Shown here piece after piece: positions 45,534 through 63,618 of a stretch of DNA of 64,000 nucleotides; position 1 is the first letter of the stretch, and each line of letters begins with the position of its first letter. The stretch covers positions 62,001-126,000 of the forward strand of contig JADEWQ010000001.1 of NCBI GenBank assembly GCA_015207585.1, written 5' to 3'. The notes under the pieces were generated by a model, which did not search any database, was not told the origin of the DNA, and saw nothing but the letters and a program-made list of their open reading frames with translations. Source of the DNA: Pleurocapsales cyanobacterium LEGE 06147. GTDB taxonomy: Bacteria > Cyanobacteriota > Cyanobacteriia > Cyanobacteriales > Xenococcaceae. Position numbers and translations under genes: made by a program.

Positions 45534-45549
45534 TAATTTAAATTTAATT

Positions 45550-45568
45550 CCTCCTGACTCCTGACTCC
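45550..45568. repeat. GGAGTCA repeat, right copy, doubles as ribosome-binding region
   Basis: On the minus strand it reads AGGAGTCAGGAGTCAGGAGG, ending 12 bases before the ATG of the four-helix-bundle gene, so it supplies a strong ribosome site. It is inverted relative to the copy at 45133-45167. Confidence 0.65.
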
Positions 45569-45575
45569 TTTCTTT

Positions 45576-47132: not shown

Positions 47133-47144
47133 TTTTTTCAGCGT

Positions 47145-47759: not shown

Positions 47760-47832
47760 CTAATTAAGTTAACAGCAAAATAGCGGATGGACGAACAAAC
47801 TAATAAAAATTGTCCCGAACCAACTCATTTCA

Positions 47833-48138
47833 TTATAAAGAAATAAAAATTTTAGACAAACCTGGCAACATCCTAGTTAGTTTTCTTTCTCCGACACTTA
47901 TTGTCAATTGCCAATTAGGAGGTTGTTTGAGCTGATTCTTATAACCCAAAATTATTAACAACAGAGCAATTCGAGTTTTCATGTATACTTTAGCCGGATA
48001 GTATCCCGACTGAATCGAAATCCTCTTAATTTCTGTTTTGCTTGCTACATTTTTATGCCAACAGCGACTAGCCTTTCCCGCTTCTATAGTATTAAAAGCG
48101 ATTAATCGCTCTAGTTTGTAATTATTTTTCTCACTATA
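47833..48138 (-). other. Open frame of 101 codons without a start, possible 5'-truncated gene remnant
   Basis: Within the 426-bp gap 47760-48185, the minus strand is open from an upstream TAA at 48139 to a TAA at 47833, e.g. IEAGKASRCWHKNVASKTEI and LGYKNQLKQPPNWQLTISVG. The only ATG gives 49 residues (MKTRIALLLIILGYKNQ). The length is unlikely in sequence this rich in A and T unless it is or was coding. I do not recognise the family. Confidence 0.35.
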
Positions 48139-48185
48139 TTAGCCAATTGCTCGTTACTTGCTATGCCAAAAATTCAAAAAATGTT

Positions 48186-49268
48186 TTAGATTAATTTCCA
48201 ACGGGATACTAATTGTCTTTTAAGTGAGATAGATGTAAGCATCCAGCTTATCAAAAAAGTAAGAGTAACCACAATTAATAAACTGAACAGAGATGGTTGT
48301 GTCAGCAGAATAGGATACACTCTCTTGCTCACCATTTGAAAAATCTCAACTATAAGCAAATGTATTAAATAAATTCCAAACGAACATACGCCTAAGTTGA
48401 GAATCATTAGACTCTCTGGCAAAATAACTGAAAGGTAAATAGCGGATAACAAGGCAGCATAGCCTATGATGACTTCCTCTATCCCTTGTGGCAGAAAATA
48501 ATTCCCAAAGATATTCAAAGTTAAAAAGATTAAAAGCAATGCAATCGCATTTTTTCGGTTAAACCTTGGTAAATATTGACTGAGTCGGGGATGATTGAGA
48601 AGCAAAGCCAAAAAGATATATGGCAAACATCTGATCGTCCAGGCAAATACCACTAGTATTAATCTAAGCAGTGGGTTGAAGTTGCCACTAGGTAAGATTG
48701 AGTTTAACAATGATTGAAAAGCAACGCCCGATATATTACTAAAGTTGTTATCAGAAACGATCAGTATTTCATAACCAATTAAACTCAAAACAAATAAAGA
48801 AGTTAATACCTTTAACTCAATCTTGTTTTTAATCCATATTTCTACAAATTTGATTAATATTGTTCCGGTGATTAATAAAGATAAAAAATACAGATGAAAA
48901 GCTGCTCCTCCACAAAAAATTAGTGCAAAAGGATCTTGCGATAAGACATATAATCTTTCTGGTTGATTACTAACTAAATATTTAGCTGCTTTGTAGCACA
49001 GATAAAATACCGACCAGAAGGCATAAGGAATGAGTAATCGTTGTAGTCTCAAATTTAACTGAAATCTTCCAGAAGCATAAATTTTAGCGATCGCCAAGTA
49101 AAAAGAGGTAGCTAAAAAAAAGGGCACGGCAAAGCAAGAGAACTCCAATATCTGTGCCCAGCCGGCTGGAAGAACAGGAATTCCTTCATCTGAGTGGAGA
49201 ATAATGACAGCGTAGACGGCAATTCCTCTAAATAAATCTACGCCTGTCAATCTTTGTTGTTTTAGCAT
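48186..49268 (-). CDS. Acyltransferase-3 family membrane protein
   Basis: 360 aa with about ten membrane spans. It starts TGVDLFRGIAVYAVIILHS, the family's R/H active region, then CFAVPFFLATSFYL. Family members O-acetylate or otherwise acylate surface polysaccharides (OafA-like). It lies 13 bp downstream of the ABC transporter gene, in the same operon, so it may modify the same exported molecule. No SGNH domain is attached. Confidence 0.85.
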   Translation of the reverse strand: MLKQQRLTGVDLFRGIAVYAVIILHSDEGIPVLPAGWAQILEFSCFAVPFFLATSFYLAIAKIYASGRFQLNLRLQRLLIPYAFWSVFYLCYKAAKYLVSNQPERLYVLSQDPFALIFCGGAAFHLYFLSLLITGTILIKFVEIWIKNKIELKVLTSLFVLSLIGYEILIVSDNNFSNISGVAFQSLLNSILPSGNFNPLLRLILVVFAWTIRCLPYIFLALLLNHPRLSQYLPRFNRKNAIALLLIFLTLNIFGNYFLPQGIEEVIIGYAALLSAIYLSVILPESLMILNLGVCSFGIYLIHLLIVEIFQMVSKRVYPILLTQPSLFSLLIVVTLTFLISWMLTSISLKRQLVSRWKLI

Positions 49269-49281
49269 AATTGTTCGATAT

Positions 49282-51120
49282 TTATCCCGTTCTTTCCAAA
49301 GCAGAATTATGAAAATATTGTTGCTCCAAAACTACCTCTTTGTAAGTGCCAGATTTGACGATCCGACCCTCATACATCATATAAATGCGATCGCAATGTT
49401 CGACTGTTGTCAGGCGATGGGCAATAATAATCATCGTTTTTGTACCACTCAAGGATTTAATTGCCTCTGTTACCAGACTTTCTGTTTCATTATCTAAAGC
49501 AGCCGTGGCTTCATCGAGAACTAAAATCTCTCTTTCGTGATAAAGTGCCCGTGCAATTCCCACTCGCTGCCGTTGACCCCCAGATAAGCGTACTCCCCGT
49601 TCGCCTACCATTGTTTTAAGACCATCGGGTAGAGCTTCAATTACTTCTGCAAGCTGTGCTGCTTTTATGGCTTTATTTAACTTTTGTTGGTCAATTAAAT
49701 GTTCGGGAACGCCAAAAGCAATATTTTTTTCAATTGTGTTGTCGGTTAAATAAATTGATTGCGGTATGTAGCCAATTAAATTTTGCCAAGAACGTAGATT
49801 ATCGTATACCGAGCGACCATCAACAATAATATTTCCTGTTTGAGGAATTAAAAGACCGAGAATTACATCAACTAAGGTAGTTTTACCCGCACCCGATTTA
49901 CCGATCAAAGCAATAGACTGACCTTTAGGGATTGTTAGCGATATACTGTCTAAAGCTATTCCTGTAGTATTCGGGTAGGAGTAGCTGACTCGATCTAAAA
50001 CAATTTTGGTAGTAAAAGTTATTTCTGGATCGCTGTTGCTATTATTGATAAATTTATTGGTCGAGTTCGACTGTATCAGCAACTCTGAAAACCGATTTTT
50101 TTCTATTGCTTCTAAATCTTTTAGCTCGAAGTAAATCTTATTAATTGCGTAGCTAGAACTACGTAGTTGGTTAATGCCATTGGCAAGATTAGTAAAGGCT
50201 GGAATTAACCGGAAAGAAGCCAAGGCAAAAATACTTAAAACAGAAGTTAGTTCTCCTACATCCTGCTGCGTAAAAATCAAAAAAACTGATGTAAAACCAA
50301 CTAAAAAAATAACCAAAATGGTTTCAATTAAGATTCGGGGAGAAAGCTTAAAAGAATAAAATGCCCCTGATGCATTTGAATATATTTCTGCTTGTTTGGC
50401 AATTTGATTTTCAAAATGTAATCCACAGCCAATAATCTGAGTTTCTTTAATTCCTCCTAAACCATGATTGACTTGACGAATAATTTCTTCGTTAGACTCA
50501 GATAATTCTTTTCCCCAAAGCAAAACTTTGGATTTAAAATGATCGAGAAGCCAGAACAAAGGAATTGTCAAAAATAGTAAAACTATGAGAGCAATTGAAT
50601 TTGTCAAAAAAAGCAAAACAGCTAAACAAAAAATAACAATAGTGTTAGAAGCTGCTGTCAGTAATGTACTCAGACTAGTAAAAAAATGGTTAGTTTCGTT
50701 AATGACATTTTGAATTATACTGGAACTATTTTTGCTCAAATGAAAGGTATAAGGAGCAAATAAGTAAGCATGAACTAATTTTGTTGTTAGTTTGACTTTT
50801 TGTTTAGAGCTAAAGATAAAGACATAGCTCTGGACGCGCCAGCTAACGTATGACTTAACACAAAATAAAATAACAATTACAAAACCGATTAAAGCGATAA
50901 ACTGACTTTCTACCTTTAAACCCGAATACACATAAATCCAATTTAACCAAGCTTTTTGATAAATAATATTCGGATCGCTAGCTAAATTAATAAATGGTCC
51001 GATTAGTCCAATGCCAAAGGTTTCCAACAAAGAAACGGAAACAAACAGAAGAGTCAAAATAATTAAACTGCTTCTTTTTGCAGGAAGTACATAAAGAAAC
51101 TTAGACAGATATCTAAGCAT
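49282..51120 (-). CDS. ABC transporter, fused permease-ATPase (MsbA/PglK-type flippase)
   Basis: 612 aa. Six membrane spans occupy about 1-320. The nucleotide-binding domain has Walker A GKSGAGKTT (407-415), signature LSGGQ (513-517 region) and Walker B EILVLDEATA (531-540). PglK-like proteins flip lipid-linked oligosaccharides. This is the second ABC exporter of the window beside Wzm/Wzt. The neighbouring acyltransferase and GT2 gene suggest a lipid-linked glycan substrate, but a lipid or peptide substrate is also possible. 171 bp separate it from the GT2 gene. Confidence 0.87.
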   Translation of the reverse strand: MLRYLSKFLYVLPAKRSSLIILTLLFVSVSLLETFGIGLIGPFINLASDPNIIYQKAWLNWIYVYSGLKVESQFIALIGFVIVILFCVKSYVSWRVQSYVFIFSSKQKVKLTTKLVHAYLFAPYTFHLSKNSSSIIQNVINETNHFFTSLSTLLTAASNTIVIFCLAVLLFLTNSIALIVLLFLTIPLFWLLDHFKSKVLLWGKELSESNEEIIRQVNHGLGGIKETQIIGCGLHFENQIAKQAEIYSNASGAFYSFKLSPRILIETILVIFLVGFTSVFLIFTQQDVGELTSVLSIFALASFRLIPAFTNLANGINQLRSSSYAINKIYFELKDLEAIEKNRFSELLIQSNSTNKFINNSNSDPEITFTTKIVLDRVSYSYPNTTGIALDSISLTIPKGQSIALIGKSGAGKTTLVDVILGLLIPQTGNIIVDGRSVYDNLRSWQNLIGYIPQSIYLTDNTIEKNIAFGVPEHLIDQQKLNKAIKAAQLAEVIEALPDGLKTMVGERGVRLSGGQRQRVGIARALYHEREILVLDEATAALDNETESLVTEAIKSLSGTKTMIIIAHRLTTVEHCDRIYMMYEGRIVKSGTYKEVVLEQQYFHNSALERTG

Positions 51121-51291
51121 ATTTGTAACTCATTTAAACTAAATTAAAGTCTGTTTTTTATTAGTTTACCTATTTATGGTCGGGAAAATCTCGCAATTTC
51201 CGTTATTTCGGGACGAAGCTTGAATTAAAACGGCTTTTTTGAATTTTTTAACTTCCTCACGAGCATACTGTGTGTTTAAAATTCCCGAAGT

Positions 51292-52320
51292 TTACCATTG
51301 AGTAGGAATTTTTTTTCTATAACCGAGGAAAGAAACAGTTTGTATGTTTAGAGCGATCGCTAAATTAATCCCTAATTCTTTAACTAATCTTTGCCGCATC
51401 CACAAAAGCCATCTTGCCATCAGCATATAGCAAGCTATTCTTTCATACCAATTTAACTGCACTCGTTTTATAGCAATAAGGTATTCCATAAACCATTTCC
51501 ACAAAGGCAACACCATCTTTTTCTTGCCTTTATTGTTCGGATCGAACCAGACATTAAACTCGTAGTAGCCATTATTTTTGCGTCCCGACGCTTGCGCATG
51601 ATCTCTATAAAAAAATAGATACTCGGAAATCTCATAAAACTCACCGAGTAGAGCAAGTTGTCCCAGCAAAATCATATCAGAGTTGACGTAACTAGCGATT
51701 AAGGGCGTTTTAGCAAGAGCGTTGGTTCGAATTACGCCAAAGATGGGAAGCCAGCAATCGCCTCCAGGATGTTTATCTATTTTGTCTCGATCGGATTCTG
51801 TTGGCGATCTTGAAGATCTTTTTTTCTTACTACTGCCAAAGATCGACTCTTGGTAGTGCTTAAATCGTTGATGGGGTTGCGGCGAACTTAGGTTAAGCAG
51901 GTTGGAGGAAGATTTTCTAAGTTGCTTTTGTCGTTCATCAATGAAAATAACTCTGGAGTAACATAAAACTAATGCCGGATTGCGATCGAGTACTTCAACA
52001 CATCGTTCTAAGTATTCTGGAGCCAACAGATCGTCATGAGCAGTCCATTTAAAATACTCGCCTTTAGCTAACTCAAAAACGCGATTGTAATTGCGCGCAG
52101 GACCTAGATTTTGTTCGTTACGGTAATAACGAATGCGTCGATCCTTGGTGGCATATGCCTTGCAAATCTCTGCCGTTCTGTCTGTCGAAGCATTATCTGA
52201 GATAATTAGCTCGAAGTCTTCAAAAGTCTGAGCCACAATGGATTTAAGAGTTTCTTCTATATAATTTTCACCATTGTATACAGGCATGCCAATGCTGACA
52301 CGGGGATGTTTATTACTCAT
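51292..52320 (-). CDS. GT2 glycosyltransferase
   Basis: 342 aa. VSIGMPVYNGENYIEETLKSI, SDNASTDRT and the TAHDDLL acidic motif define a GT-A family 2 enzyme. A charged stretch at about 160-185 (SSKKKRSSRSPTESDRDKID) looks like an insertion in a surface loop. It is soluble with no membrane segment. It is followed downstream by the ABC flippase and acyltransferase genes. Confidence 0.87.
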   Translation of the reverse strand: MSNKHPRVSIGMPVYNGENYIEETLKSIVAQTFEDFELIISDNASTDRTAEICKAYATKDRRIRYYRNEQNLGPARNYNRVFELAKGEYFKWTAHDDLLAPEYLERCVEVLDRNPALVLCYSRVIFIDERQKQLRKSSSNLLNLSSPQPHQRFKHYQESIFGSSKKKRSSRSPTESDRDKIDKHPGGDCWLPIFGVIRTNALAKTPLIASYVNSDMILLGQLALLGEFYEISEYLFFYRDHAQASGRKNNGYYEFNVWFDPNNKGKKKMVLPLWKWFMEYLIAIKRVQLNWYERIACYMLMARWLLWMRQRLVKELGINLAIALNIQTVSFLGYRKKIPTQW

Positions 52321-52382
52321 CTAGACTTTTTTTACCTTTTAGGATTTTGATAATTAAAGTTTTAAAAGATTTATCTTTATAC

Positions 52383-53675
52383 TTAAGCGCGATCGCTAGT
52401 TACATTAATTTGTTCCCTTGGACAAAGATTTTTGTACTGGTACAACAGATTCTCTACAACCTTGTCGTAGGTAAAGAGTGCCACTACCCGTTCTCTTCCC
52501 GCCTTTGCCATTGTTTTTCTGGTTTGTTCGTCTGCAAGTAGTTGTAAGATTGCTTCGGCTAATGCATCAGCATCATCCCGTTCGACAATTAAACCCGTTT
52601 TACCCTCTTCGACAACTTCCTCAAAAGCACCACTACGACTGACTACTACGGGAACTTCCGTAGCCATAGCCTCAATAATTGGAATTCCAAATGCTTCGTT
52701 GACTACGGATGGGAAGACAAAAACGTCTGCATTTTGATAGCGATCTACCAATTCAGAATTGGGAACAGAACCGATAAAAGATATTTGATTGGCTATAGAA
52801 GAATTTTGCCACTGGGAAAGATAACTCATCCATTTATCTGGATAAAATGAGGCTAATTTGGTAACTAGAGGATCGTCGCTCAAAGCAACGATTAATTCAT
52901 AGGGTATTAACTGGGTAAAACCAACAAGTTCGAGCTGCGTTTCCGGATAACGCTCGATAACTTTTTCAAAAGCTTCTAATAATATATGTATCCCTTTCTC
53001 TGGCGAAATTCTGCCTACAAATAGCAATTTTTTTGTTTTATTTGTTTTATTTTTTATCTGCTCATCCGTGGGGCAAAACTTTTTGATATCTACGCCGTTA
53101 TAAACTGTCTGGCAACGGTCGGCAAATTTAGGAAATGTTTGACGAATTTTTCCACTAATATATTCGCTGCAACTAAGTACTAAATCGGCTTGATTAAGTC
53201 TGTTGGCAATCATTGTGCGCTCGAGTTGACTCAACCACTCGCAGTGCATGTGTAAGACAATTTTAATGTTGGGATTAAAACTCCGAATAATAGGAATAAA
53301 CTGAGAAGAGTTAAAAATATGAACGATATCGCATTGCTGCTTCCTCAAATCTTTGGCGATTTGTAAGGCATATACTGAGTAATACAATCTTGAGGAAAAA
53401 AGAGGTTGTTTAGGATTATGATTACCTGATAATTGCTCTAGTAATTTAAGCAGCTTAACTAAGCGTTCATCAATACTAATCGAAATATATCGATAACACA
53501 CGCTCGCGTCATAATTTTGTTTAACCCAGCCTTTTTTTGGATATTTTGCATAAACAATAACATCGGCAAACTGAGCCAAACGTCGTGCAACTTCGTAAGT
53601 CCATATCGCAATCGAGCTTTCTAGCTTCGGTGGAGCAATTATATCCCCTGGCTGGCTAACAAAAGCAATTTTCAT
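52383..53675 (-). CDS. GT4 glycosyltransferase
   Basis: 430 aa from the ATG at 53675, which has AGGAAATAAA just upstream and starts the fold (MKIAFVSQPGD); an ATG at 53696 is less likely. Acceptor half IAIWTYEVARRLAQF; donor half LFVGRISPEKGIHILL and EAFGIPIIEAMATEVP. It matches a cyanobacterial GT4 type that starts with PPxxxSIAIW. Its coding direction and 62-bp gap link it to the GT2 gene downstream. Confidence 0.88.
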   Translation of the reverse strand: MKIAFVSQPGDIIAPPKLESSIAIWTYEVARRLAQFADVIVYAKYPKKGWVKQNYDASVCYRYISISIDERLVKLLKLLEQLSGNHNPKQPLFSSRLYYSVYALQIAKDLRKQQCDIVHIFNSSQFIPIIRSFNPNIKIVLHMHCEWLSQLERTMIANRLNQADLVLSCSEYISGKIRQTFPKFADRCQTVYNGVDIKKFCPTDEQIKNKTNKTKKLLFVGRISPEKGIHILLEAFEKVIERYPETQLELVGFTQLIPYELIVALSDDPLVTKLASFYPDKWMSYLSQWQNSSIANQISFIGSVPNSELVDRYQNADVFVFPSVVNEAFGIPIIEAMATEVPVVVSRSGAFEEVVEEGKTGLIVERDDADALAEAILQLLADEQTRKTMAKAGRERVVALFTYDKVVENLLYQYKNLCPREQINVTSDRA

Positions 53676-53868
53676 TTTATTTCCTGATTCAATCATTATG
53701 CCAAGATCGCGTAAAGCTTTCGCTCTCTCAGTGCCGATGTTTTAAAGTAAATTTTGTCGAATGCTTTCGCTGTAATTGTGGTGAACGATCTTTAGGATGA
53801 TAGCGATCGCTTTTTTGGGCTTTTGGTGATATTGCTTTATTTAACTGGATTTATTGCTGCCCACATAC

Positions 53869-54792
53869 TTAAAAACCAAATTTTGGGATTAAATGCAGCA
53901 TTTTCTGCTGAACTTTTTTGATAAGCGGCTGCTTTCCTCTTTTTCTTTCCATATACTTTCTATCAAAGTAGCGATCTATTCTTACAGAGTCATTATGTTT
54001 GAGTGGAAACTGAAGAGAATAAAGAGGAGAGTTAGCGTCTACTGAATGGGACGATTTTAGATGAGTAGCATTCGAACCGAAGCCAATATTTGAAATCAAA
54101 TTCACAGATGGCAGAATAGTCAGACCCGAATTTGCCATGACGGCAAAAAACCATTGATAACCCCAAAAATCATAACCTTTTTCTTTTCGATAAGCTTTTT
54201 CAAAATTCTTTGCCATTTCTCGATACTGAAAATCGTTAGCAATAAATTTTTTTAATTGTTGTTTAACTTCTCGATCGGCCCAAGCTTTGATATCGTAGTC
54301 AAAATAACGCCATGCTCTCGACCACGAAGCCCAACCCCATGGAACGGGGCAAAAAGAGAAATGATAACTCTGTTTATTCGATTTCCATTTTCCCAGTCCA
54401 TTGTATCCACCAATTGTCATGATACGCTCATCATCTTGGTATTTTTCTAATAACTCATCACAAAATCTGAAAAAACTCGGAGCGGGCAAACAGTCATCTT
54501 CAAGAATAATAGCTTGCTCTACTTGTTCAAACACCCACGAAAGACCGCTCGCTATACGCCTTCCACATCCCAAGTTGATATCTGAATAGTTCTCGATCAC
54601 TTCGCAATCCCAATCAACGCGCTTAATAATGGCGCGGCTTGCAGCACACTTTTCTGCTTCTTTTGGTCGGTCGACACGAGGTCCGTCTGCAATTACAAAG
54701 AGTTTGGGAGGCTTAGCTCGACGAATAGCTTCAAATACTTTCTCGGTAGTATCGGGTCGGTTGAAGATCACCAAAGCAACAGGAGTTTTCAT
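53869..54792 (-). CDS. GT-A glycosyltransferase-like protein (family 2 related)
   Basis: 307 aa from the ATG at 54792, preceded by GAGGCAGCAA; the fold begins KTPVALVIFNRPDTTEKVF. IADGPRVDRPKEAEKCAASR and AIILEDDCLPAP (DxD-like) are typical of a GT2-related group often labelled hemolytic-protein HlpA-like or sugar transferase. A C-terminal YQWFFAVMANSGL follows. Substrate unknown. It lies 130 bp downstream of the WecG-like gene. Confidence 0.78.
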   Translation of the reverse strand: MKTPVALVIFNRPDTTEKVFEAIRRAKPPKLFVIADGPRVDRPKEAEKCAASRAIIKRVDWDCEVIENYSDINLGCGRRIASGLSWVFEQVEQAIILEDDCLPAPSFFRFCDELLEKYQDDERIMTIGGYNGLGKWKSNKQSYHFSFCPVPWGWASWSRAWRYFDYDIKAWADREVKQQLKKFIANDFQYREMAKNFEKAYRKEKGYDFWGYQWFFAVMANSGLTILPSVNLISNIGFGSNATHLKSSHSVDANSPLYSLQFPLKHNDSVRIDRYFDRKYMERKRGKQPLIKKVQQKMLHLIPKFGF

Positions 54793-54922
54793 TTGCTGCC
54801 TCACGAAGCATTTTTTTATCACTATAGAAAAACTTCCCAGCAGCGCAACCCAGAATTTTTAGCAATTTGTCAAGATTAGTTGACATGATCGGGAGTCAAT
54901 TTATATAAACTTTTGTTTCGAG

Positions 54923-56206
54923 CTAGCTAGCAAGAATATCATCTACCAAAATCTGATCTTTGGTTTCTTGAGCCTTGACATTCAACCACCAGCCCTGTCT
55001 GCGCCAATACTGTTCTAGCAAAACTAATCTAAGTTGCTCGTAAGAAATGAGTTTTTGCTCTAGCATAATTTCTCCTAATTTTTTGTTTGTTTGTTTCTGT
55101 TGCTGTAGTAGTTTGTCTAGTTTTCTTGGCAAAAGTAGTTTTTTGTTAACTAAAATTTCCCCAAATTTTATCCTTTGATTTTTAAGATGGTACTTGAGTT
55201 CGGGGAGAGAAAGATATCCTTCTTCGAGCAGAATCTCTCCTAATTTGAGTTGAGGATAAACGCTCTGTTTCTTTAAAGCTTTTTCTAAACTTTCCTCAGT
55301 TAATAAATTTTGCCGGATTAAAATCTGACCAATTTTGCTTGGTTTAGGTTCAAAAGATTGAACATTAAATAATGTATTGTGACTTGGTAAAAGAAACTGA
55401 GCATATTCGGTTAAATTAAGCTTATAAAAAGGCTTGGGCTTTGTTATTATTTGTTTAAGAGCTAAATAAACGAAGGGTGGAATAGTCTGACTGTAACGAT
55501 TCCAAAGACGACTGGGTTCTTGAAATAACCGATATAACCATTCCAAACCTAACTCTCGAATATATTGGGGAGCGCGCCTATAAATACCAGCATAAGTTGG
55601 AAAAACTGCTCCCAAACCAATCATGACTGCTTTAATCTTTCCTTGATGTCGGGAGATCCAGAATTCTTGCTTGGGACAACCCAGACAAACGAATAATAAT
55701 CCCGCTCCGCTTTGATTTATTTTTTGGATCAATTCTTCATCTTCTGTTTTAATTACGTCGGCTAGAGTACGAAAAGGTAAAGCTTCCATGCCAGCAACTT
55801 TCAGTACTGGAAATTCCTGTTCCAATCTTTTCTTAATTTTTTGAAGTATTGCGTTATGGGAACCTACAAAAAATACACTTATTTGACTCTGTTGGGCTAG
55901 CTCACATAAATTAAGAAAAACATCCATTCCCGCAACTCGATTTTGGTTATAAATTCCCAGCTTTCTTAGCATCCAAACTAAAGGCATGCCATCGGGACTA
56001 ACCAGATCGGCACTTTCTAATACGCGAGCAAAACTTTGATTCCAATAAGCCTCCATGATCATATGAACATTAGCCAGACAGACGCTCCTACTTTCTCGTA
56101 TTCTTGCCCACTTAAGCATTAAAAAAATTTGCTCTTCAAGACACAAGCTAGTAATAGGAGATTTAAGCACCCATGTAGTTGGAATAGTTGGAATGTGAGA
56201 TTTCAT
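54923..56206 (-). CDS. WecG/TagA/CpsF (GT26) glycosyltransferase fused to four MshEN-type motifs
   Basis: 427 aa; the usual family length is about 240-250. The GT26 domain (about 15-240) has VCLANVHMI, SADLVSPDGMPLVW, VAGMDVF, FFVGSHNAI and LGCPKQEFWI. After a linker come four 24-residue units at 291-314, 321-344, 347-370 and 376-399, each of the form [K][ILF]G.I[LM][LIV]..x[LY][LI]....L...L..Q. This is the pattern of MshEN/GspE N-terminal c-di-GMP binding motifs. All four have Lys where the consensus has Arg, and only unit 2 keeps the second Gly, so ligand binding is unproven. GT26 enzymes add the second sugar to a polyprenyl-linked acceptor at the membrane. Confidence 0.85.
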   Translation of the reverse strand: MKSHIPTIPTTWVLKSPITSLCLEEQIFLMLKWARIRESRSVCLANVHMIMEAYWNQSFARVLESADLVSPDGMPLVWMLRKLGIYNQNRVAGMDVFLNLCELAQQSQISVFFVGSHNAILQKIKKRLEQEFPVLKVAGMEALPFRTLADVIKTEDEELIQKINQSGAGLLFVCLGCPKQEFWISRHQGKIKAVMIGLGAVFPTYAGIYRRAPQYIRELGLEWLYRLFQEPSRLWNRYSQTIPPFVYLALKQIITKPKPFYKLNLTEYAQFLLPSHNTLFNVQSFEPKPSKIGQILIRQNLLTEESLEKALKKQSVYPQLKLGEILLEEGYLSLPELKYHLKNQRIKFGEILVNKKLLLPRKLDKLLQQQKQTNKKLGEIMLEQKLISYEQLRLVLLEQYWRRQGWWLNVKAQETKDQILVDDILAS

Positions 56207-56454
56207 TTTTACCCAGTTTCTTTCCTCTATATTTAGTTGTGGAGGACGAGTTTAGTGGGCGATTTACCTCTAGCAATAAGCAACAGCCAAAAAGCAAGTA
56301 AGAATTTGTATTTACTTTTAATAACAATATTTAAAGAAATACAATTCAAAATAGTGCAGGTAGTGCAGATAATTACTAATAATCCCAAAGTCATTTAACT
56401 ACAAACAATTACTACTATTTTTCTTATTTTGCTTTGGAAACTACCTAGCTATAA

Positions 56455-56862
56455 TTATGCTTGGTATCCATAATAAACTTTGCGACTCATGCGATACGTA
56501 AATTCGCTCACTGATGGATTAGGTTTAGTCGGATTTATTGTTTTATTAGTCTGCTTCCAATCTTCTTTTTTTGCTGGTCGATATACAATGTTTCCATCAC
56601 TCTGACGAGAAAGAAGCAGCCATATTCTACCGTGTTCGGTACAAAAAAATTCTTCTATCCATGAATTGCGATCGATATAAGCTGAATTTTGAGTTGCTAA
56701 AAAACTTGCTTTCTTAGCGGATATTTTTAGATTTTGGCGAATCTCAGCTGCGTTTTGATAAAAAAGATAATATTTAGTACTGCCTAAACGCCACAATCTC
56801 ATTCCACACAATGGACAAAAAAAATGCTGAACTCTTTTTCTTTTGCTTCTTTTGTTAGGCAT
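56455..56862 (-). CDS. Small zinc-ribbon protein of unknown function
   Basis: 135 aa. A basic N-terminus (PNKRSKRKRVQHFF) precedes a CPLCG pair (Cys16, Cys19); a second possible metal pair is CTEH (about 73-76). The middle is helical and the C-terminus is polar. I do not recognise the family beyond similar cyanobacterial hypothetical proteins. It might bind nucleic acid. It is divergent from the Wzc-like gene across a 666-bp regulatory region, so a regulatory link is possible but not shown. Confidence 0.6.
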   Translation of the reverse strand: MPNKRSKRKRVQHFFCPLCGMRLWRLGSTKYYLFYQNAAEIRQNLKISAKKASFLATQNSAYIDRNSWIEEFFCTEHGRIWLLLSRQSDGNIVYRPAKKEDWKQTNKTINPTKPNPSVSEFTYRMSRKVYYGYQA

Positions 56863-57169
56863 GTTTTTCTCGGTTATTTTTTGATTTTCCTACAACTAAC
56901 ATTTTTTAGTTTTGACTTTTATTTATAATAGTTATTTTTTCTTTCTGGTTAACCTTCATTTTTTTAAAACTAAGTGATGGGCAAACTAAGTCATTTTTTT
57001 CTTGTTTAAGTTATTGACTTACATGTAGTTACTTATATTCTGTTTTTACAATAGTTAATAATAGGCACGAGAATTCTCTTAATTCGGAACTACTAAAGTG
57101 CACTCTCGGTGTCTTCTTTTAGTAATTCGCAGTAACAATCTACTGGAGGCTCAGTAGACTCAATGAGGG

Positions 57170-57197
57170 TTGTCCTTAGTTATGTATGCTTTATAAT
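57170..57197 (+). promoter_or_regulatory. Candidate sigma-70 promoter of the Wzc-like gene
   Basis: TTGTCC at 57170-57175 and TATAAT at 57192-57197 are 16 bases apart. A second GCTTTATAATT lies exactly 20 bases further on (57208-57218), so there may be two start sites or an overlapping binding site. Confidence 0.45.
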
Positions 57198-57370
57198 TTT
57201 TATGCAGGCTTTATAATTACTTAGTAGATATTACTGAAATTGTAATTTATAAGTCAATAGTAAAGGGGATAATTTTGCAAAATGAATAAATAATTAGTAA
57301 ATCGACCTAGACACTTCAATTTATTTTATTATCAACTATTTTTGGTATCAACATGAACAATTGCCATAAG

Positions 57371-57434
57371 CTTGATAAAAACTTTAAGTAAACTTGATAA
57401 AAACTTTAAGTAAACTTGATAGAAACTTTAAATA
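57371..57434 (+). repeat. 22-bp tandem repeat, about 2.9 copies, upstream of the Wzc-like gene
   Basis: Two perfect copies of CTTGATAAAAACTTTAAGTA (plus AA) at 57371-57392 and 57393-57414 and a third diverged copy at 57415-57434. The period is near two helical turns. It lies about 95 bases before the start codon, inside the inferred leader. Confidence 0.85.
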
Positions 57435-57528
57435 CTTATCGAAATCTTTATAAAGACTCGGTGAATCGGTTAATTCTAATATTTAAATTTCTTACCTAAA
57501 ATATAAAGTTAATGACAAGGTCAAAAAA

Positions 57529-59685
57529 ATGAAGATCAACCACAACTCCCAGATACTAAACATTACTCAAAAACCTCAACTTTATGAAAATGATGAAGGA
57601 GGTTTTAATTTAGTTGAAGTAAAAGAGATAATCTTCCGACAAATATATTTAATAGCTGGAATTACGACGGCAGTGGCTTCTCTAGCTTTACTAAAAGCTT
57701 TAATTCGCCCTCCAATGTACGTGGGGAATTTTGAGATTCTCGCAGAATCTGTCACTATTCAAACTTCTTTTACTGCTTCGGGTGCTCGTTCTCAACAAAC
57801 TCAAGAATCAGAAGTTGCAGCGGATTTAAATGAAACGCAGCTTAAAGAATTAACAAGTCCTAAAATGATTCTTCCTATAGTTGACCAGCTTAAAGAGCGA
57901 TATCCTGATATTAATTATAATTCGATTATTAGTAGCTTACAGCTTGAAACCAACCAACAGCAAAACATTTTAGTCGCTACTTATCAAAATTCCGACCAAA
58001 ACCAAGTTCAAGATGTGTTGGAGGCACTGACCACAACATACTTAAATTATAGCCTCGAAAGACGACAGGCAGGTGTCAACCGAGGTATGGAATTTCTAGA
58101 CCAGCAAATACCAAAGGCACAAGCGGACGTTAATGCTCTAAACCAGCAATTACAATTTCTTCGAGACAAATATAACTTTATCGACCCTCAAATTCAAGCT
58201 AATCAATTATCAGGTCAACTACAAAACTTAGCCAACAAAAAACTCGATATTAAATCGCAACTAAATGAAACTCAAATCCGAGCCGGCGATCTCAGCGCAG
58301 AATTAAGTCGCCAACAGTCAACCACATCGGCACCAGCGATAGAATTCGGTACTTCACGCTACGAGCAATTACACAGCGATCTTAGAGCAATAGAGGTTGA
58401 AATTGCCCAAAAATCGGCTATTTTTTCGGACTCATCTGTAGAAATGCAGACTTTACGAGAACAGAGAGATCGATTAGAGGCTCTATTGGCTCAAGAAGGA
58501 AAAACAGTTCAAAAAAATGCTAGTGACAAAATTAATATACTGACCGAGAGCGATCGCATTATAGGGCAAGAAATAAGCAACATCCAGCAAGAAATGAAAC
58601 AATGGACGGCGATCGCACGTAATTATGAAGAGATCGCACAGGAATTAGAAATTGCCAAAGAAAGGCTCCGTTCACTGCTCCTTGAGAAAGAAGCTCTGAG
58701 TATTGATATTGCTCAAAAAGAAGCCCCTTGGCGAATACTCACTCCTGTTGGCGAGCCTACTACTGATTCTGCCAGCTTATTTAACGATGTAGTTTTAGGA
58801 GCGACTTTTGGTTTATTGTTAGGTATGGGAGTGGCGTTTGCCCTAGATAAATATCAAAACATTCTTTATACCTCAGCTCAAATTCAAGAAATAACCCATT
58901 TGCCCATACTGGGAATTATTCCTTTCGATCCCTCTCACAAACAATTATCTTTACCCGACAAAACATCATCCTTAGCTAAATCGCCCCAAACACAAGAGGA
59001 GGACTTTGAATCGTTATTGGAAGAGCAGGGATTACAACTATACGATAAATATCTCTTATCCTCGAACCTATTATCTCCATCAGCAGAAGCTTTTCGTTTT
59101 TTTGGTGCCAATCTTAATCTGTTTGATGCAAATAATCCTATTCGTTCTCTGATGATTACTTCAGCCATATCTGGAGAAGGTAAATCTACGGTTGCTATCA
59201 ATATAGCTAAGACTGCGGCAGCCCTCGGTCGCCGAGTATTAGTCGTCGATACTGATATGCGCAGTGCCCATGACTTGAGTGCTCCTCAAGCACCCACCCA
59301 TCGTGGCTTAAGTAATCTTTTATTAAACAAAAATCTTAATTTTGATGAGGTAATCCAACAATCACCACTGGAAGATAACCTATTTATCATGTCTTCTGGT
59401 AATTACAGTTCGATTATTGACGATCCTAGTCGACTTTTGGCATCGCCAAAAATGTGGAATTTGATGGAAGAATTAAAAGCTCATTTCGATCTAATTATCT
59501 ATGATTCGTCGCCAATGATTAAATTTGCCGATGTCAGTTTATTAGCTCCTAAAACTGATGGAGTCGTTCTAGTTACTGGTTTGGGTAAGCTACAAACTAT
59601 AAAATTCAAGGAAGCGTTAGATAAGTTAAGTCTATCCAATACTCCTGTTTTAGGAATACTGATTAACAAGGTAACGGCTAAATAA
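57529..59685 (+). CDS. Polysaccharide chain-length/BY-kinase family protein (Wzc-GumC like) without Tyr tail
   Basis: 718 aa. Membrane span at about 36-58, Wzz-type periplasmic region with coiled coils (about 180-400), and second span at about 418-438. The cytoplasmic BY-kinase domain has Walker A SGEGKST (548-554), Walker A' VLVVDTDMRS and Walker B LIIYDSSP (655-662). The usual Walker B end is DTPP or DSPP. The protein stops at NKVTAK, with no Tyr cluster, so it cannot autophosphorylate in the common way. It controls polymer length and export in Wzy-type systems. Start has AAGG eight bases upstream. Confidence 0.88.
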   Translation: MKINHNSQILNITQKPQLYENDEGGFNLVEVKEIIFRQIYLIAGITTAVASLALLKALIRPPMYVGNFEILAESVTIQTSFTASGARSQQTQESEVAADLNETQLKELTSPKMILPIVDQLKERYPDINYNSIISSLQLETNQQQNILVATYQNSDQNQVQDVLEALTTTYLNYSLERRQAGVNRGMEFLDQQIPKAQADVNALNQQLQFLRDKYNFIDPQIQANQLSGQLQNLANKKLDIKSQLNETQIRAGDLSAELSRQQSTTSAPAIEFGTSRYEQLHSDLRAIEVEIAQKSAIFSDSSVEMQTLREQRDRLEALLAQEGKTVQKNASDKINILTESDRIIGQEISNIQQEMKQWTAIARNYEEIAQELEIAKERLRSLLLEKEALSIDIAQKEAPWRILTPVGEPTTDSASLFNDVVLGATFGLLLGMGVAFALDKYQNILYTSAQIQEITHLPILGIIPFDPSHKQLSLPDKTSSLAKSPQTQEEDFESLLEEQGLQLYDKYLLSSNLLSPSAEAFRFFGANLNLFDANNPIRSLMITSAISGEGKSTVAINIAKTAAALGRRVLVVDTDMRSAHDLSAPQAPTHRGLSNLLLNKNLNFDEVIQQSPLEDNLFIMSSGNYSSIIDDPSRLLASPKMWNLMEELKAHFDLIIYDSSPMIKFADVSLLAPKTDGVVLVTGLGKLQTIKFKEALDKLSLSNTPVLGILINKVTAK

Positions 59686-59693
59686 TCTTTCTT

Positions 59694-61457
59694 TTAGAGA
59701 AGGAAACTATCGAACTCGATCGCTGCCGATCCTGGTTGTCGGATATCGTAGCGATAACTAGTTATGGTTCCCGTTGCGGTATCTAAAATACTAAAAACAG
59801 TAATATCATTACTGGCTATGTAGGGTAACTCATGGCCGAGATCGTCTTGTAAAGGAGCAATAGTCGGCATGACTGGTTCCAAGCCGTTGGGATCTCCTAT
59901 CTGGACATAGTTTAGGTCTGGATTATCTTTTGGTACTGGTCGCTTATTATCTCCCACATGAGCCCCGTAAGTATTGCCCACATTAGAAGTTTCTAAAAAA
60001 TGCATGCCACTAGGACTAACAAAGCGATTCCACAGATGAGAATGACCGTAAAATACCAACTGAACTCCTGCTGATTCGAGTAGGGGAATTAAATCGCGAA
60101 TGATGTAGTCATTGGCTTGAGGATATTCGTAACGAATCGATCTAAGGGTGCCATCTGCTGCATAATCGAATCGAGGCAGGGGATCGGTATAGGGTGGAAC
60201 GATGTTACCGCCGAGAGTGTGGGGTGGATGATGAAACATCACTATTTTATATTTCGCCTGTTGAAAAGCTTCGCTTTGTAGTTCTGTTTCCAACCAACGA
60301 TATTGAGGACTACCCTTAGCAATCGGTTCAAAAATATGTTGCCCATAACCCCAATTTTCCGGACGCTCTAAGTCTGAAGTTCGTTCTTGATATCTACCCT
60401 TAACTTCGGGGTCGAGATCGGGCGATCGCCAGATGTTAGTCACGTACAATACTACTAAGCGAATATCGCCAAAAGTGACAGCATAGTAATGTTTTCCTCC
60501 AGGAATACTTTGGGGCGGGGTAAAAATTTCTTCGTAGGTGTCGGTGTTAAAAGAATTAGCTTTGAGCCAAGCTGCCTTGACTTGGGGATCGTCTGAGGAA
60601 TTGATTTGCTCGGCTACTCGTTGGTAGTGTTTTTCTGCCCGAACTCTGGGAATCGCATCGTCAAATTGCTCTTTGAGGGAATTAGTTTGAGAAAATCTTC
60701 CCATAACCTCATGATTACCGATCGCCGTAAATAAAGGGGCGTGTTGAATTAGTTCTCCACCGCGATAAACTGTTTTTACGCCATCCTTTTCTATCTCGTA
60801 GCGAGCGCGACCTTGCAGACAGGGGAAAAACGCACCGCCACGACGATCGTCAAACCATTCAGAAGCGCGATCGCTTATATTGACTAAATCCCCTGCAAAA
60901 AAAACGGCATCCACCTTACCCACGGTTTCTTCTACTTTTTGTAAGTTGGCAGCCGTCATGGGCATTAGTTGATGATCGGAAGTTAACAGAATTTTAAGTG
61001 GTGTTTCTGGTGAGGGTTGGCTGGCTAAAGTAAATACCCGACTGCGAATTTCTACTCCATCGCGCACGCTAACTACCTGATAGGGGATGCGTCGATCGGG
61101 AATTAGATCGCTCACTATTGCTTCATGTCGCCAAATATCCCGCCAAGTTGGCTGTTGATAGTCTTTATTTAATTCTGACTTTTGGTCTTCTCGTACCCGC
61201 GTTAGTTTAGTCGTAACTGCTTCAACCGTTTTATCTAATTTTTGCTCGTAGTTAACCCGGTGGTGATCGCCAGCAAAATCTGTAAACCAAATTACTCGTA
61301 CGGAAGTTGCCGTCGGCAACTGCAGAAAAGGATCGCTCAACAACGAAGAAGTCGATTGGGTAAATGATTGGGTTGGAGACAAATTCATAACTGATAAGAG
61401 CAAAAGCGACAGAAAAAATCCTACAAGAGTTAAAAACGGGAAATGGGAGAGCTTCAT
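59694..61457 (-). CDS. Secreted metallophosphoesterase with purple-acid-phosphatase-like N-domain
   Basis: 587 aa. A signal peptide-like N-terminus (FPFLTLVGFFLSLLLLSV) is followed by a fibronectin-like region (about 45-155; ATSVRVIWFTDF). The phosphoesterase domain has LLTSDHQ, FFAGDLVN, AIGNHEVMG, MFHHPPHT and YGHSHLW, the full set of metal ligands. It probably removes phosphate from exported substrates. It is convergent with the Wzc-like gene, eight bases between the stops, and marks the change to ordinary genome. Confidence 0.86.
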   Translation of the reverse strand: MKLSHFPFLTLVGFFLSLLLLSVMNLSPTQSFTQSTSSLLSDPFLQLPTATSVRVIWFTDFAGDHHRVNYEQKLDKTVEAVTTKLTRVREDQKSELNKDYQQPTWRDIWRHEAIVSDLIPDRRIPYQVVSVRDGVEIRSRVFTLASQPSPETPLKILLTSDHQLMPMTAANLQKVEETVGKVDAVFFAGDLVNISDRASEWFDDRRGGAFFPCLQGRARYEIEKDGVKTVYRGGELIQHAPLFTAIGNHEVMGRFSQTNSLKEQFDDAIPRVRAEKHYQRVAEQINSSDDPQVKAAWLKANSFNTDTYEEIFTPPQSIPGGKHYYAVTFGDIRLVVLYVTNIWRSPDLDPEVKGRYQERTSDLERPENWGYGQHIFEPIAKGSPQYRWLETELQSEAFQQAKYKIVMFHHPPHTLGGNIVPPYTDPLPRFDYAADGTLRSIRYEYPQANDYIIRDLIPLLESAGVQLVFYGHSHLWNRFVSPSGMHFLETSNVGNTYGAHVGDNKRPVPKDNPDLNYVQIGDPNGLEPVMPTIAPLQDDLGHELPYIASNDITVFSILDTATGTITSYRYDIRQPGSAAIEFDSFLL

Positions 61458-61563
61458 CTCTTTTTTTCTTCCCCAACTATCTAGATATAATCTTTATTGT
61501 AAAGTTTTGTTGCAAAGACAAATAACCAACAAGTATATCAATTACAGGCTGAGGGAGTTAGAA

Positions 61564-61598
61564 GCGCGGTGCGGCAGCACCCGCATTCGCGGGATCGC
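61564..61598. repeat. Palindromic dispersed element, intergenic copy
   Basis: GCGCGGTGCGGCAGCACCCG then CATTCGCGGGATCGC, the cleanest copy in the window. It shows both hairpins (GGTGC/GCACC and CCCGC/GCGGG) and the HIP1-like end. It lies between the phosphoesterase and ftrV genes. Confidence 0.85.
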
Positions 61599-61633
61599 TT
61601 CAATTATCGTCACGAAATATTAAAGCAATAATA

Positions 61634-61855
61634 TTAAATAACTTCCAGCTCATTTTCGCGAAAGTGAGCTTTAAACTTTTTGTCAAATCGAACTACCACT
61701 GGCAAATTTGGGCTTATCGGTCTTCCTTGCCAATCCGTATAGATATTAATTATTTCTCCTTCCATACCCTTGAGATCGAAAGGCTTTTTTTTATTTTGGG
61801 GATGATGATATACCACTACAGATTCAATGACACGGACGCGATCGCCAATTTTCAT
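61634..61855 (-). CDS. ftrV: Ferredoxin-thioredoxin reductase, variable chain
   Basis: 73 aa from the ATG at 61855, the normal FtrV size; an upstream ATG at 61900 adds a non-conserved leader. MKIGDRVRVIESVVVYHHP, EGEIINIYTDWQGRPISPNLP and KKFKAHFRENELEVI are strong family matches. It pairs with the catalytic chain (not in the window) to pass electrons from ferredoxin to thioredoxin, linking light to enzyme activation. It identifies the host as an oxygenic phototroph. Confidence 0.95.
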   Translation of the reverse strand: MKIGDRVRVIESVVVYHHPQNKKKPFDLKGMEGEIINIYTDWQGRPISPNLPVVVRFDKKFKAHFRENELEVI

Positions 61856-61997
61856 CTCTTGTTCTCTCTCTCTCTTCACTCCCAAGTTGAATGAATTCAA
61901 AGTTGGGTAAGCAACCTTACTATTTTTGCATAGGAAGGTACTTTCAAGGTTACATATCCCTTATCCACCGATAGCTCTTAGTAATCGATTAATAGGA

Positions 61998-62028
61998 AGA
62001 CTATCATGGAGGATGAATAGTCTTTTTT
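61998..62028 (+). terminator. Terminator-like hairpin just before nfeD
   Basis: AGACTAT (61998-62004) pairs with ATAGTCT (62017-62023) around a 12-base loop, followed by a run of T to 62028. The loop contains GGAGGA. It ends 15 bases before the nfeD ATG, an odd place for a simple terminator; it may act as an attenuator or end a short upstream transcript. Confidence 0.45.
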
Positions 62029-62043
62029 TGTTAAGACTAACTA

Positions 62044-62475
62044 ATGCTAAATCCGACTCTTGTCTGGCTTATTGCTGGAGCAATTCTGTGTTTGATGGAA
62101 TTGATTTTCCCTACTGCTTTTGTTGAGTTTATGATGGGCATTGCCGCTTTACTAGTAGCAGTAGTCTCCTTGATATTACCAAATCATACCTTGTTGGTAG
62201 CGCTGTGGTTAATTTTTTCCACTTTGCTGATTATTTTCTCGCGACGTTTTTTTACTCCTAAACGCAGAATTACTGAGTTTGGGGACGATAGGGAAGGGGA
62301 AACCATCACGGCAATTTCTCCAGGTAAAACGGGAAGAGTTTTATATGAAGGTAATTCCTGGCGCGCTAAATGTGCCGACCAAATTTTAGAAATCGCCCCC
62401 AATCAAAAAGTTTACGTTGTCGGCAAAGAGGGCAACACGCTGATTGTTCTACCAGAAAACTTACTCGATCCTTAG
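62044..62475 (+). CDS. NfeD-like membrane protein
   Basis: 143 aa. Two to three N-terminal spans (WLIAGAILCLMELIFPTAF, GIAALLVAVVSLILP) precede a small OB-fold domain (about 85-140; GKTGRVLYEGNSWRAKC). This is the short NfeD type that pairs with SPFH/stomatin proteins. The next gene is such a protein, 99 bp downstream in the same direction. The start lacks a clear ribosome site near it. Confidence 0.88.
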   Translation: MLNPTLVWLIAGAILCLMELIFPTAFVEFMMGIAALLVAVVSLILPNHTLLVALWLIFSTLLIIFSRRFFTPKRRITEFGDDREGETITAISPGKTGRVLYEGNSWRAKCADQILEIAPNQKVYVVGKEGNTLIVLPENLLDP

Positions 62476-62574
62476 TTAGCAAGTTATCTCTCTGTCTGGC
62501 ATAAAGCTTGTTTGTAGCTTGGCGATAAAGTTTGAGCGACCAATTAATGTAGATAGCTATTGAGGAAACTTGAA

Positions 62575-63585: not shown

Positions 63586-63618
63586 TCTTTTTTGACTTTA
63601 ACTTCCGCATGACAATAT

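What the first reader, a model, noticed from the sequence alone, without database searches (positions are those of the whole stretch)
54923..56206. GT26 glycosyltransferase fused to four MshEN-type 24-residue motifs: possible c-di-GMP-controlled sugar transfer
After a complete WecG/TagA/CpsF domain, residues 291-399 hold four units that each fit the 24-residue MshEN spacing (G at 3, hydrophobic 6-7, hydrophobic 11-12, L at 17 and 21, Q at 24). MshEN domains are known as high-affinity c-di-GMP receptors on GspE/MshE ATPases. If the fold binds c-di-GMP here, second-messenger level would act directly on a polysaccharide glycosyltransferase. Caution: Arg1 is Lys in all units and Gly10 survives only in unit 2; the unit 1-2 and 2-3 spacers are 6 and 2 instead of 5. 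Family knowledge supports the pattern; regulation is inference.
Basis: partly seen in the sequence, partly recalled or inferred. Interest (0 to 1): 0.85.

Follow-up and report, generated by a model that had tools for sequence, protein, structure and literature searches.

The report
Sugar transferase with c-di-GMP sensor tail
A cyanobacterial enzyme that adds an early sugar to a slime polysaccharide carries a built-in tail that looks like a sensor for the bacterial signal molecule cyclic di-GMP, so the signal may switch slime building directly at that step.

Summary
Window 54923-56206 (-) encodes 427 aa: a GT26 (WecG/TagA/CpsF) domain followed by four 24-residue MshEN-type units (residues 291-399, spacers 6, 2, 5). 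The tail matches NCBIfam's c-di-GMP motif model (78.6 bits, cut-off 38); Pfam's MshEN model misses it. The AlphaFold2 model of its first module superposes on c-di-GMP-bound MshE (1.4 A over 60 residues) and PilF GSPII-B (1.1-1.4 A). Across 27 genes with this tail type (window included) the published ligand-contact positions are conserved beyond the hydrophobic core. GT26+MshEN fusions occur in at least 24 of 120 sampled genomes of the order; the fused GT26s do not form one clade, and a second tail type (G2) has lost part of the motif. In one genome the module also sits on a phosphoglycosyl transferase and a GT4. Best reading: a c-di-GMP-gated second-step glycosyltransferase of lipid-linked polysaccharide assembly. 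Binding and regulation are inferred, not shown. E. coli NfrB (GT2-MshEN) is the precedent, so this is a new variant of a known kind.

The parts
54923..56206 (-). GT26-MshEN fusion gene, 427 aa
   Evidence: ORF
55493..56011 (-). GT26 domain, residues 66-238; general base D72 (TagA D65)
   Evidence: Pfam PF03808 E 1.6e-59; fold = TagA, Z 24.4; D72 invariant in 41 of 41 aligned sequences
55439..55588 (-). C-terminal appendage of GT26, about residues 207-256, with R226, R233, R237 (TagA R214, R221, R224)
   Evidence: alignment to TagA chain 7mpk; the three Arg invariant in 41 of 41 sequences
55337..55438 (-). variable linker, residues 257-290
   Evidence: pLDDT 52-79 in the blocks 251-290; most variable of the parts measured, entropy 1.88 bits
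55265..55336 (-). MshEN unit 1, residues 291-314 (module 1)
   Evidence: pattern, profile, model
55175..55246 (-). MshEN unit 2, residues 321-344 (module 1)
   Evidence: pattern, profile, model
55097..55168 (-). MshEN unit 3, residues 347-370 (module 2)
   Evidence: pattern, profile, model
55010..55081 (-). MshEN unit 4, residues 376-399 (module 2)
   Evidence: pattern, profile, model
54977..55009 (-). conserved basic-aromatic C-terminal segment YWRRQGWWLNV, residues 400-410; possible membrane contact (inference)
   Evidence: R402 invariant, G405 and L408 at 90% or more in 19 sequences, window included
57529..59685 (+). neighbour: Wzc-type polysaccharide tyrosine autokinase / chain-length protein, divergent from the GT26 gene
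   Evidence: TIGR01007 123.1 bits, cut-off 108.05; a homologue within 8 kb in 19 of 26 distinct G1 loci, window included
56455..56862 (-). neighbour: 135-aa Cys-containing protein of unknown family lying between the two
   Evidence: no Pfam or NCBIfam match; homologues in 9 of 18 neighbourhoods, window included

Best explanation
The protein is a membrane-associated GT26 glycosyltransferase that adds a sugar to a polyprenyl-PP-linked first sugar in a Wzc-associated extracellular polysaccharide pathway, and its C-terminal tail is a double MshEN receptor that binds c-di-GMP (module 1 most likely with high affinity, module 2 probably weaker). Binding is proposed to change how the tail packs on the GT domain and its C-terminal appendage, which in TagA is thought to fold at the membrane to complete the active site, and so to shift the enzyme between inactive and active states; activation by c-di-GMP is more likely than inhibition, by analogy with NfrB. 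SHOWN by computation: domain make-up, predicted fold, conservation of ligand-contact positions, gene context, GGDEF domains in the genome. INFERRED: ligand binding, affinity, acceptor and step, the docking switch, the direction of the effect.
For: NF053729 78.6 bits. AF2 full-length pLDDT 89.9, pTM 0.90, the twelve 10-residue blocks of 291-410 at 89-98; tail alone pLDDT 88.6. Module 1 on c-di-GMP-bound MshE 5htl: rmsd 1.4 A over 60, Z 8.8; on five PilF GSPII-B crystal structures 1.1-1.4 A over 57-58; the seven best rows are all c-di-GMP-bound MshE or GSPII-B, though the seventh, an NMR model, fits at 4.3 A. In 27 G1 genes contact positions (1, 2, 3, 17, 21, 24 of each unit) have mean entropy 0.60 bits against 1.39 (core) and 1.72 (rest), p 3e-4 and 9e-8; Q24 is kept in 26, 27, 23 and 23 of 27. 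Lys at position 1 goes with KD 6 nM in PilF GSPII-B (PMC11731258, passages). Position 1, both Q24 and G3 are motif residues that the non-binding GSPII-A had to be given (PMC12002112, passages); all are present here. GT catalytic Asp and three appendage Arg are kept; GT fold = TagA Z 24.4. 22 GGDEF matches in the genome. NfrB is a c-di-GMP-binding GT-MshEN: GT-site changes abolish and MshEN changes reduce N4 phage plating (PMC8669469, passages). GT26 HfsJ is inhibited by HfiA, and lesions near the HfsJ C-terminus relieve it (PMC3900383, passages).
Against: Pfam MshEN does not match. NF053729 also passes its cut-off on G2-tailed GT26s (57.6-81.2 bits in 5 of 5 tested), whose Q24 is lost in even units (0 of 18 in unit 2, 2 of 18 in unit 4), so a profile hit on a GT26 does not by itself mean c-di-GMP. 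An intact motif is not sufficient either: restoring the consensus in GSPII-A did not restore binding until the N-cap of helix 1 and the C-subdomain contacts were removed as well (PMC12002112, passages). Foldseek gave no hit at E <= 0.001 for the tail; Z 8.8 is modest for a helical bundle, and an unrelated aspartase scores 5.7. Gly10 is missing in 3 of 4 units; the spacer of module 1 is 6, not 5. Module 2 is less conserved; one relative lacks unit 3 (L070 = L114) and in L115 units 3-4 have largely lost the motif. No ligand docking or assay was possible.
Confidence: 0.65

Rival explanations
1. The tail is an MshEN-fold scaffold: it does not sense c-di-GMP but docks the transferase to partners (Wzc, phosphoglycosyl transferase, other GTs, a PilZ protein), as the PilB N-domain docks PilZ.
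For: Module 2's structural matches include the Xanthomonas PilB N-domain from PilB-PilZ complexes (7lko, rmsd 1.9 A over 56, Z 5.3). G2 tails are kept on GT26, GT4 and a phosphoglycosyl transferase although part of the binding motif is gone.
Against: In G1 tails, the window's type, contact positions are conserved beyond the core (p 3e-4); in 18 G2 tails they are not (0.72 against 0.73 bits, p 0.47). A pure scaffold does not explain Gln24 and Lys/Arg1 in all four units.
Confidence: 0.22
2. The tail binds c-di-GMP, but as a targeting device or sink, without changing catalysis by its own GT domain.
For: The linker is long and variable.
Against: pTM 0.90 for the full-length model suggests a defined tail-GT arrangement (my inference, PAE not seen); NfrB needs its GT residues and is weakened by MshEN changes (PMC8669469, passages).
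Confidence: 0.1
3. The tail is a decaying remnant with no present function.
For: Non-consensus Gly10 and spacers; loss of a unit in one relative and of motif residues in another.
Against: Contact positions are more conserved than the GT domain average (0.56 against 0.90 bits in 19 sequences); most of the 27 G1 genes keep them in all units.
Confidence: 0.03

Closest known systems
NfrB of E. coli (GT2-MshEN exopolysaccharide synthase)
   Same: Glycosyltransferase with a C-terminal MshEN domain; c-di-GMP binding tied to polysaccharide output (PMC8669469, passages).
   Different: NfrB is a GT2 synthase with two predicted transmembrane helices; here a GT26 expected to act on a lipid-linked intermediate, with two MshEN modules, beside a Wzc-type gene.
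MshE N-terminal domain (V. cholerae) / NF053729
   Same: 24-residue motif pairs, helix layout, contact residues.
   Different: Lys for Arg at position 1, no Gly10 in 3 of 4 units, spacer 6 in module 1, no room for the MshEN_C subdomain, two modules joined by a 2-residue spacer.
PilF GSPII-B (T. thermophilus)
   Same: Lys at position 1 of its first motif, c-di-GMP at 6 nM; module 1 superposes at 1.1-1.4 A on its crystal structures.
   Different: Part of a pilus ATPase; has a C-terminal subdomain.
TagA/TarA (GT26)
   Same: Fold (Z 24.4), general base Asp, appendage Arg residues.
   Different: Thr37, which may orient ManNAc, is Leu44 here (invariant in 19 G1 sequences); no MshEN tail.
HfsJ of Caulobacter (GT26 inhibited by HfiA)
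   Same: GT26 as a post-translational control point; residues near the C-terminus mediate it (PMC3900383, passages).
   Different: Control by a separate inhibitor protein, not a fused nucleotide receptor.

Membership tests
GT26 (WecG/TagA/CpsF) | Profile match over the whole domain | tested here: met
   PF03808 200.9 bits, cut-off 27.4; TIGR00696 175.4 bits, cut-off 69
GT26 (WecG/TagA/CpsF) | TagA-like fold | tested here: met
   Z 24.4, rmsd 1.9 over 196 to 7mpk
GT26 (WecG/TagA/CpsF) | General base Asp65 and appendage Arg214/221/224 | tested here: met
   D72, R226, R233, R237
GT26 (WecG/TagA/CpsF) | Thr37 (possible ManNAc-orienting residue of TagA) | tested here: not met
   Leu44; taken as a donor feature of TagA, not as defining the family, so ManNAc transfer is not claimed
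GT26 (WecG/TagA/CpsF) | Transfers a sugar to a polyprenyl-PP-linked acceptor | not testable with these tools
   needs an enzyme assay
MshEN c-di-GMP domain | Two 24-residue motifs with a 5-residue spacer | tested here: met
   two pairs, spacers 6 (module 1) and 5 (module 2)
MshEN c-di-GMP domain | Curated profile NF053729 | tested here: met
   78.6 bits, cut-off 38; not discriminating, as G2 tails pass too
MshEN c-di-GMP domain | Curated profile PF05157 (90 positions) | tested here: inconclusive
   no match at E <= 10; the 53-residue N part is what binds (PMC5013675, section 12)
MshEN c-di-GMP domain | Contact residues [RKL]1, hydrophobic 2, G3, L17, L21, Q24 | tested here: met
   all four units; Ile at position 2 in unit 1 and Phe in unit 3
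MshEN c-di-GMP domain | Gly10 (or Ala/Ser) in each motif, part of the published consensus | tested here: not met
   only unit 2 of 4; described as a turn residue, not a contact. So the tail is filed as an MshEN-related variant, not as a perfect MshEN
MshEN c-di-GMP domain | Four-helix MshEN_N fold | tested here: met
   AF2 tail, 1.4 A over 60 to 5htl, Z 8.8; Foldseek E values weak
MshEN c-di-GMP domain | Binds c-di-GMP | not testable with these tools
   needs ITC or DRaCALA
NfrB-type synthase | GT2 catalytic domain | tested here: not met
   GT26 instead; it may work like NfrB but is not an NfrB

The most novel reading that the evidence does not exclude
A mobile four-unit MshEN cassette has been bolted repeatedly onto successive enzymes of lipid-linked polysaccharide assembly in cyanobacteria (initiating phosphoglycosyl transferase, second-step GT26 of two far-apart subfamilies, GT4), so that one second messenger, or in the G2 type another ligand or a shared docking partner, sets the flux at several committed steps of the same pathway at once.
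Probability: 0.35. Interest if true: 0.8.

Novelty: new variant of a known kind. Interest (0 to 1): 0.6.

Why it matters
To my knowledge, how c-di-GMP reaches exopolysaccharide output in cyanobacteria is thinly explained by known receptors. A receptor fused to an early committed step of lipid-linked assembly would give a direct, transcription-free valve that can be tested with one purified protein. It would also widen NfrB from a GT2 example to GT26 (and perhaps to a phosphoglycosyl transferase and a GT4), and it supplies a natural contrast set (G1 with intact sites, G2 with degraded ones) for what the module does.

Tried and rejected
Chance repeat: rejected. Pfam DUF4388 hit: bit score at threshold and a range (159-328) spanning the GT domain and linker, so not used. 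FumaraseC_C hits: under cut-off. One fusion event shared by all fused GT26s as a single clade: rejected, holding the 37 fused rows of 82 together costs 350 log-likelihood units, AU p 2.4e-30 (4 of the 86 rows were dropped first: one exact duplicate, which I had fetched again and which one search counted as unfused, and three long branches). Gain and repeated loss cannot be told apart by this test. Origin of the G1 tail from a neighbouring stand-alone gene: a GT26 profile found no GT26 in the seven regions read around stand-alone genes (L230-L235, L238), so not supported; Wzc genes were not searched for there. A c-di-GMP riboswitch or other Rfam RNA nearby: none at gathering scores in 44000-64000. 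Foldseek on the full-length model gave only TagA chains at E <= 0.001; the tail had to be folded alone. What cce_1044, used as a query by Wang et al. 2016, is: not resolved; that paper's supplementary tables could not be read, so a GT26-MshEN protein may be listed there. Coordinates and PAE were not available, so the tail-GT docking could not be examined.

Full report
OBSERVATION. The ORF at 54923-56206 (-) is 427 aa. Residues 66-238 are GT26 (PF03808, E 1.6e-59). The four units are KIGQILIRQNLLTEESLEKALKKQ (291), KLGEILLEEGYLSLPELKYHLKNQ (321), KFGEILVNKKLLLPRKLDKLLQQQ (347) and KLGEIMLEQKLISYEQLRLVLLEQ (376), with spacers 6, 2, 5. A relaxed motif pattern finds no unit in 19,999 of 20,000 shuffled tails.

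PROFILES. NCBIfam NF053729 (c-di-GMP motif, MshE-related) matches with 78.6 bits against a cut-off of 38, two stretches. Pfam MshEN does not match the protein, nor does it hit this place when searched over the genome. PDB sequence search with the tail lists 12 chains, all of them PilF, PilB or MshE. In this genome NF053729 passes its cut-off at four places in two genes: this one and a 725-aa MshEN-TPR protein. The profile is not a test of binding: it also passes on G2-tailed GT26s (57.6-81.2 bits, 5 of 5 tested), see below.

STRUCTURE. The full-length AF2 model (41 sequences) has pLDDT 89.9 and pTM 0.90. The GT part is TagA-like (7mpk Z 24.4, rmsd 1.9 over 196). In the model each unit is a 7-residue helix followed by one of 11-16, the helix-linker-helix layout described for MshE. 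The tail folded alone (23 sequences, pLDDT 88.6, pTM 0.73) gives only weak Foldseek E values (best 0.88). VIA-align, a second look at 46 Foldseek chains, places module 1 on c-di-GMP-bound MshE 5htl at 1.4 A over 60 residues (Z 8.8), on five PilF GSPII-B crystal structures at 1.1-1.4 A over 57-58 (Z 7.7-8.2) and on its NMR model at 4.3 A (Z 6.1); the best unrelated row, an aspartase, has Z 5.7; module 2 matches PilB N-domains at 1.9-2.7 A over 56-58 (Z 5.0-5.3). The tool warns that Z under about 13 is common for helical bundles. A pTM of 0.90 over two domains suggests that AF2 places the tail on the GT domain in a fixed way; this is my inference, as PAE was not shown.

LIGAND SITE. By Wang et al. 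2016 (PMC5013675; passages, section 12 and part 1 of section 13 seen) contacts come from Arg1, Leu2, Gly3, Leu17, Leu21 and Gln24; Gly10 makes a turn; the isolated N subdomain binds c-di-GMP slightly better than the whole domain; perfect conservation may not be needed. The PilF GSPII-B study (PMC11731258, passages) found Lys at motif 1 and Leu at motif 2, KD 6 nM, K167R 150 nM, and widens the consensus to (R/K/L)LG. The GSPII-A study (PMC12002112, passages) found that position 1 of motif II and both Gln24 had to be restored for measurable binding and Gly3 for high affinity; it also found that the restored motif alone was not enough, because a helix-1 N-cap and contacts of the C-subdomain had to go as well. 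The window's tail has the motif residues in all four units; whether helix 1 carries a blocking cap was not tested. In 27 G1 genes (window included) the contact positions have mean entropy 0.60 bits against 1.39 for core and 1.72 for the rest (p 3.4e-4, 9.2e-8; the sequences are related, so p values are only a guide). With 19 sequences of the window's family the values were 0.56, 1.24 and 1.48, module 1 being tighter (0.38) than module 2 (0.75); the GT domain averaged 0.90.

TWO TAIL TYPES. G1 (the window's): 2-residue gap between units 2 and 3 in most members, and a conserved basic-aromatic segment after unit 4. G2: a longer gap after unit 2, Gln24 absent in unit 2 (0 of 18) and nearly so in unit 4 (2 of 18); its contact positions are no more conserved than its core (0.72 against 0.73 bits, p 0.47), though more than the rest (1.42) (18 G2 sequences that I picked from those at hand, near-duplicates and a truncated tail left out). 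By the published rules G1 should bind and G2 should bind poorly, or bind something else. G2 tails occur on two GT26 subfamilies. Those on the subfamily near the window (44-54% identical to the window's protein) and those on the far one (27-32%) have tails 34-59% identical to each other, against 19-31% between G1 and G2 tails. So tails seem to move as modules. All fused GT26s as one clade are rejected (AU p 2.4e-30), and starred branches force at least 3 changes of the unfused label; gains cannot be told from losses there. G1 alone lies on one side of a branch, weakly supported (37 and 55).

DISTRIBUTION. Family of the window's genome: 27 genomes searched, 17 with a match at E <= 1e-60; 19 G1 genes including the window's lie in 15 of the 27. 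Collection of 84,980 species genomes: patterns taken from the GT part found 298 relatives; 79 loci (best 80) were shown; 22 of 79 carry a tail (18 G1, 4 G2), 57 do not. Order: the tail profile matches in 68 of 120 genomes; among the loci whose ORFs I read, GT26+MshEN fusions occur in 24 of 120 genomes from 11 families by the tool's codes, a lower bound because only part of the listed matches was read. Genome G159 carries the G2-type module on two GT26s (L050, where only units 1-2 remain, and L053), on a phosphoglycosyl transferase (PF02397, L236) and on a GT4 that is followed by a Wzc-like gene (L237).

CONTEXT. A homologue of the window's Wzc-type gene lies within 8 kb of the G1 gene in 18 of 25 distinct loci besides the window (19 of 26 with it), in 13 of the 18 on the opposite strand and under 1.5 kb away, against 3 of 57 unfused loci (10 duplicate loci removed by hand; some contigs end early). 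G2 loci: 2 of 11, which are one gene seen twice. The contrast is confounded with lineage: the unfused loci are mostly Nostocales by their titles, and of four G1 loci from Nostocales (L100, L102, L103, L109) only one has the neighbour. The window's neighbour passes the cut-off of TIGR01007, polysaccharide biosynthesis tyrosine autokinase. Downstream of the GT26 gene lie a gene without Pfam match, then GT4-like, GT2 and ABC-transporter genes. In L247 the order is Wzc-like, GT26-MshEN (G2), phosphoglycosyl transferase, which fits a second-step role. The genome has 22 GGDEF matches, catalytic residues not checked, and two other GT26 genes in open frames of 279 and 292 codons, too short to carry the tail.

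MECHANISM. TagA is proposed to be an inactive soluble dimer whose C-terminal appendage folds on membrane contact and supplies a catalytic Arg (PMC6493773, passages). The matching residues are intact here (D72, R226, R233, R237), and the MshEN tail starts about 35 residues after that appendage, so ligand-driven repacking of the tail is well placed to favour or block the active state. Lys at position 1 suggests high affinity, so module 1 could respond at low c-di-GMP and module 2 at higher levels; PilF has two sites of unequal affinity (12 and 324 nM). The conserved basic-aromatic end (YWRRQGWWL) may touch the membrane. TagA Thr37 is Leu44 here, so the donor sugar may not be ManNAc. All of this paragraph beyond the residues is inference.

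LITERATURE. Searches for MshEN with glycosyltransferase and c-di-GMP, cyanobacteria, WecG and glycosyltransferase and undecaprenyl, and GT26 with c-di-GMP, listed no paper whose title or abstract start is about a GT26-MshEN protein. I read passages of six papers and only listings of the others; only open-licence papers are held; and Wang et al. state that MshEN can be fused with glycosyltransferases, with tables that I could not read.

VERDICT. Observation confirmed; interpretation supported as far as sequence and predicted structure can go; a new variant of a known kind.

Noticed in passing
L236 1891-2970 and L237 603-2141 (genome G159): MshEN (G2-type) module fused to a phosphoglycosyl transferase (PF02397) and to a GT4 transferase that is followed by a Wzc-like gene; the same genome has two GT26-MshEN genes.
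   Followed up: partly
L232 2989-3384, L231 5764-6159, L230 6155-6550, L233 6093-6488, L238 5718-6113: Stand-alone 131-aa proteins made of a G1-type four-unit module plus a YWQKxGFWLI end; no GT26 gene nearby by profile, an epimerase-like gene (by eye) beside two of them; possibly free c-di-GMP adaptors.
   Followed up: partly
own genome L016 5967-8144: 725-aa protein: G2-like four-unit MshEN module at the N-terminus, TPR repeats at the C-terminus.
   Followed up: partly
window 56455-56862 (-): 135-aa Cys-containing protein (FFCPLCG ... FFCTEHG) of no known family, between the GT26-MshEN and Wzc-type genes and kept beside the fusion gene in several relatives.
   Followed up: partly
window 40944-49268: NRPS-like condensation/carrier/thioesterase protein, AMP-binding enzyme, Rv2949c-like chorismate pyruvate-lyase and acyltransferase near the sugar genes: perhaps a hydroxybenzoate or acyl decoration of the glycan.
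   Followed up: no
L094 4603-5844 and 14245-15360: Two GT26-MshEN paralogues about 8.4 kb apart; the second lacks unit 3.
   Followed up: no
L243 1495-2439; L239 1273-2373; L228 220-1194: MshEN modules fused to an M23 peptidase, to a hydrophobic (apparently multi-pass) protein of no Pfam family, and to what look like pentapeptide repeats (the last two by eye).
   Followed up: no
L101: Contig labelled Candidatus Gracilibacteria carries a typical cyanobacterial GT26-MshEN gene; probably a mis-binned or mislabelled MAG.
   Followed up: no
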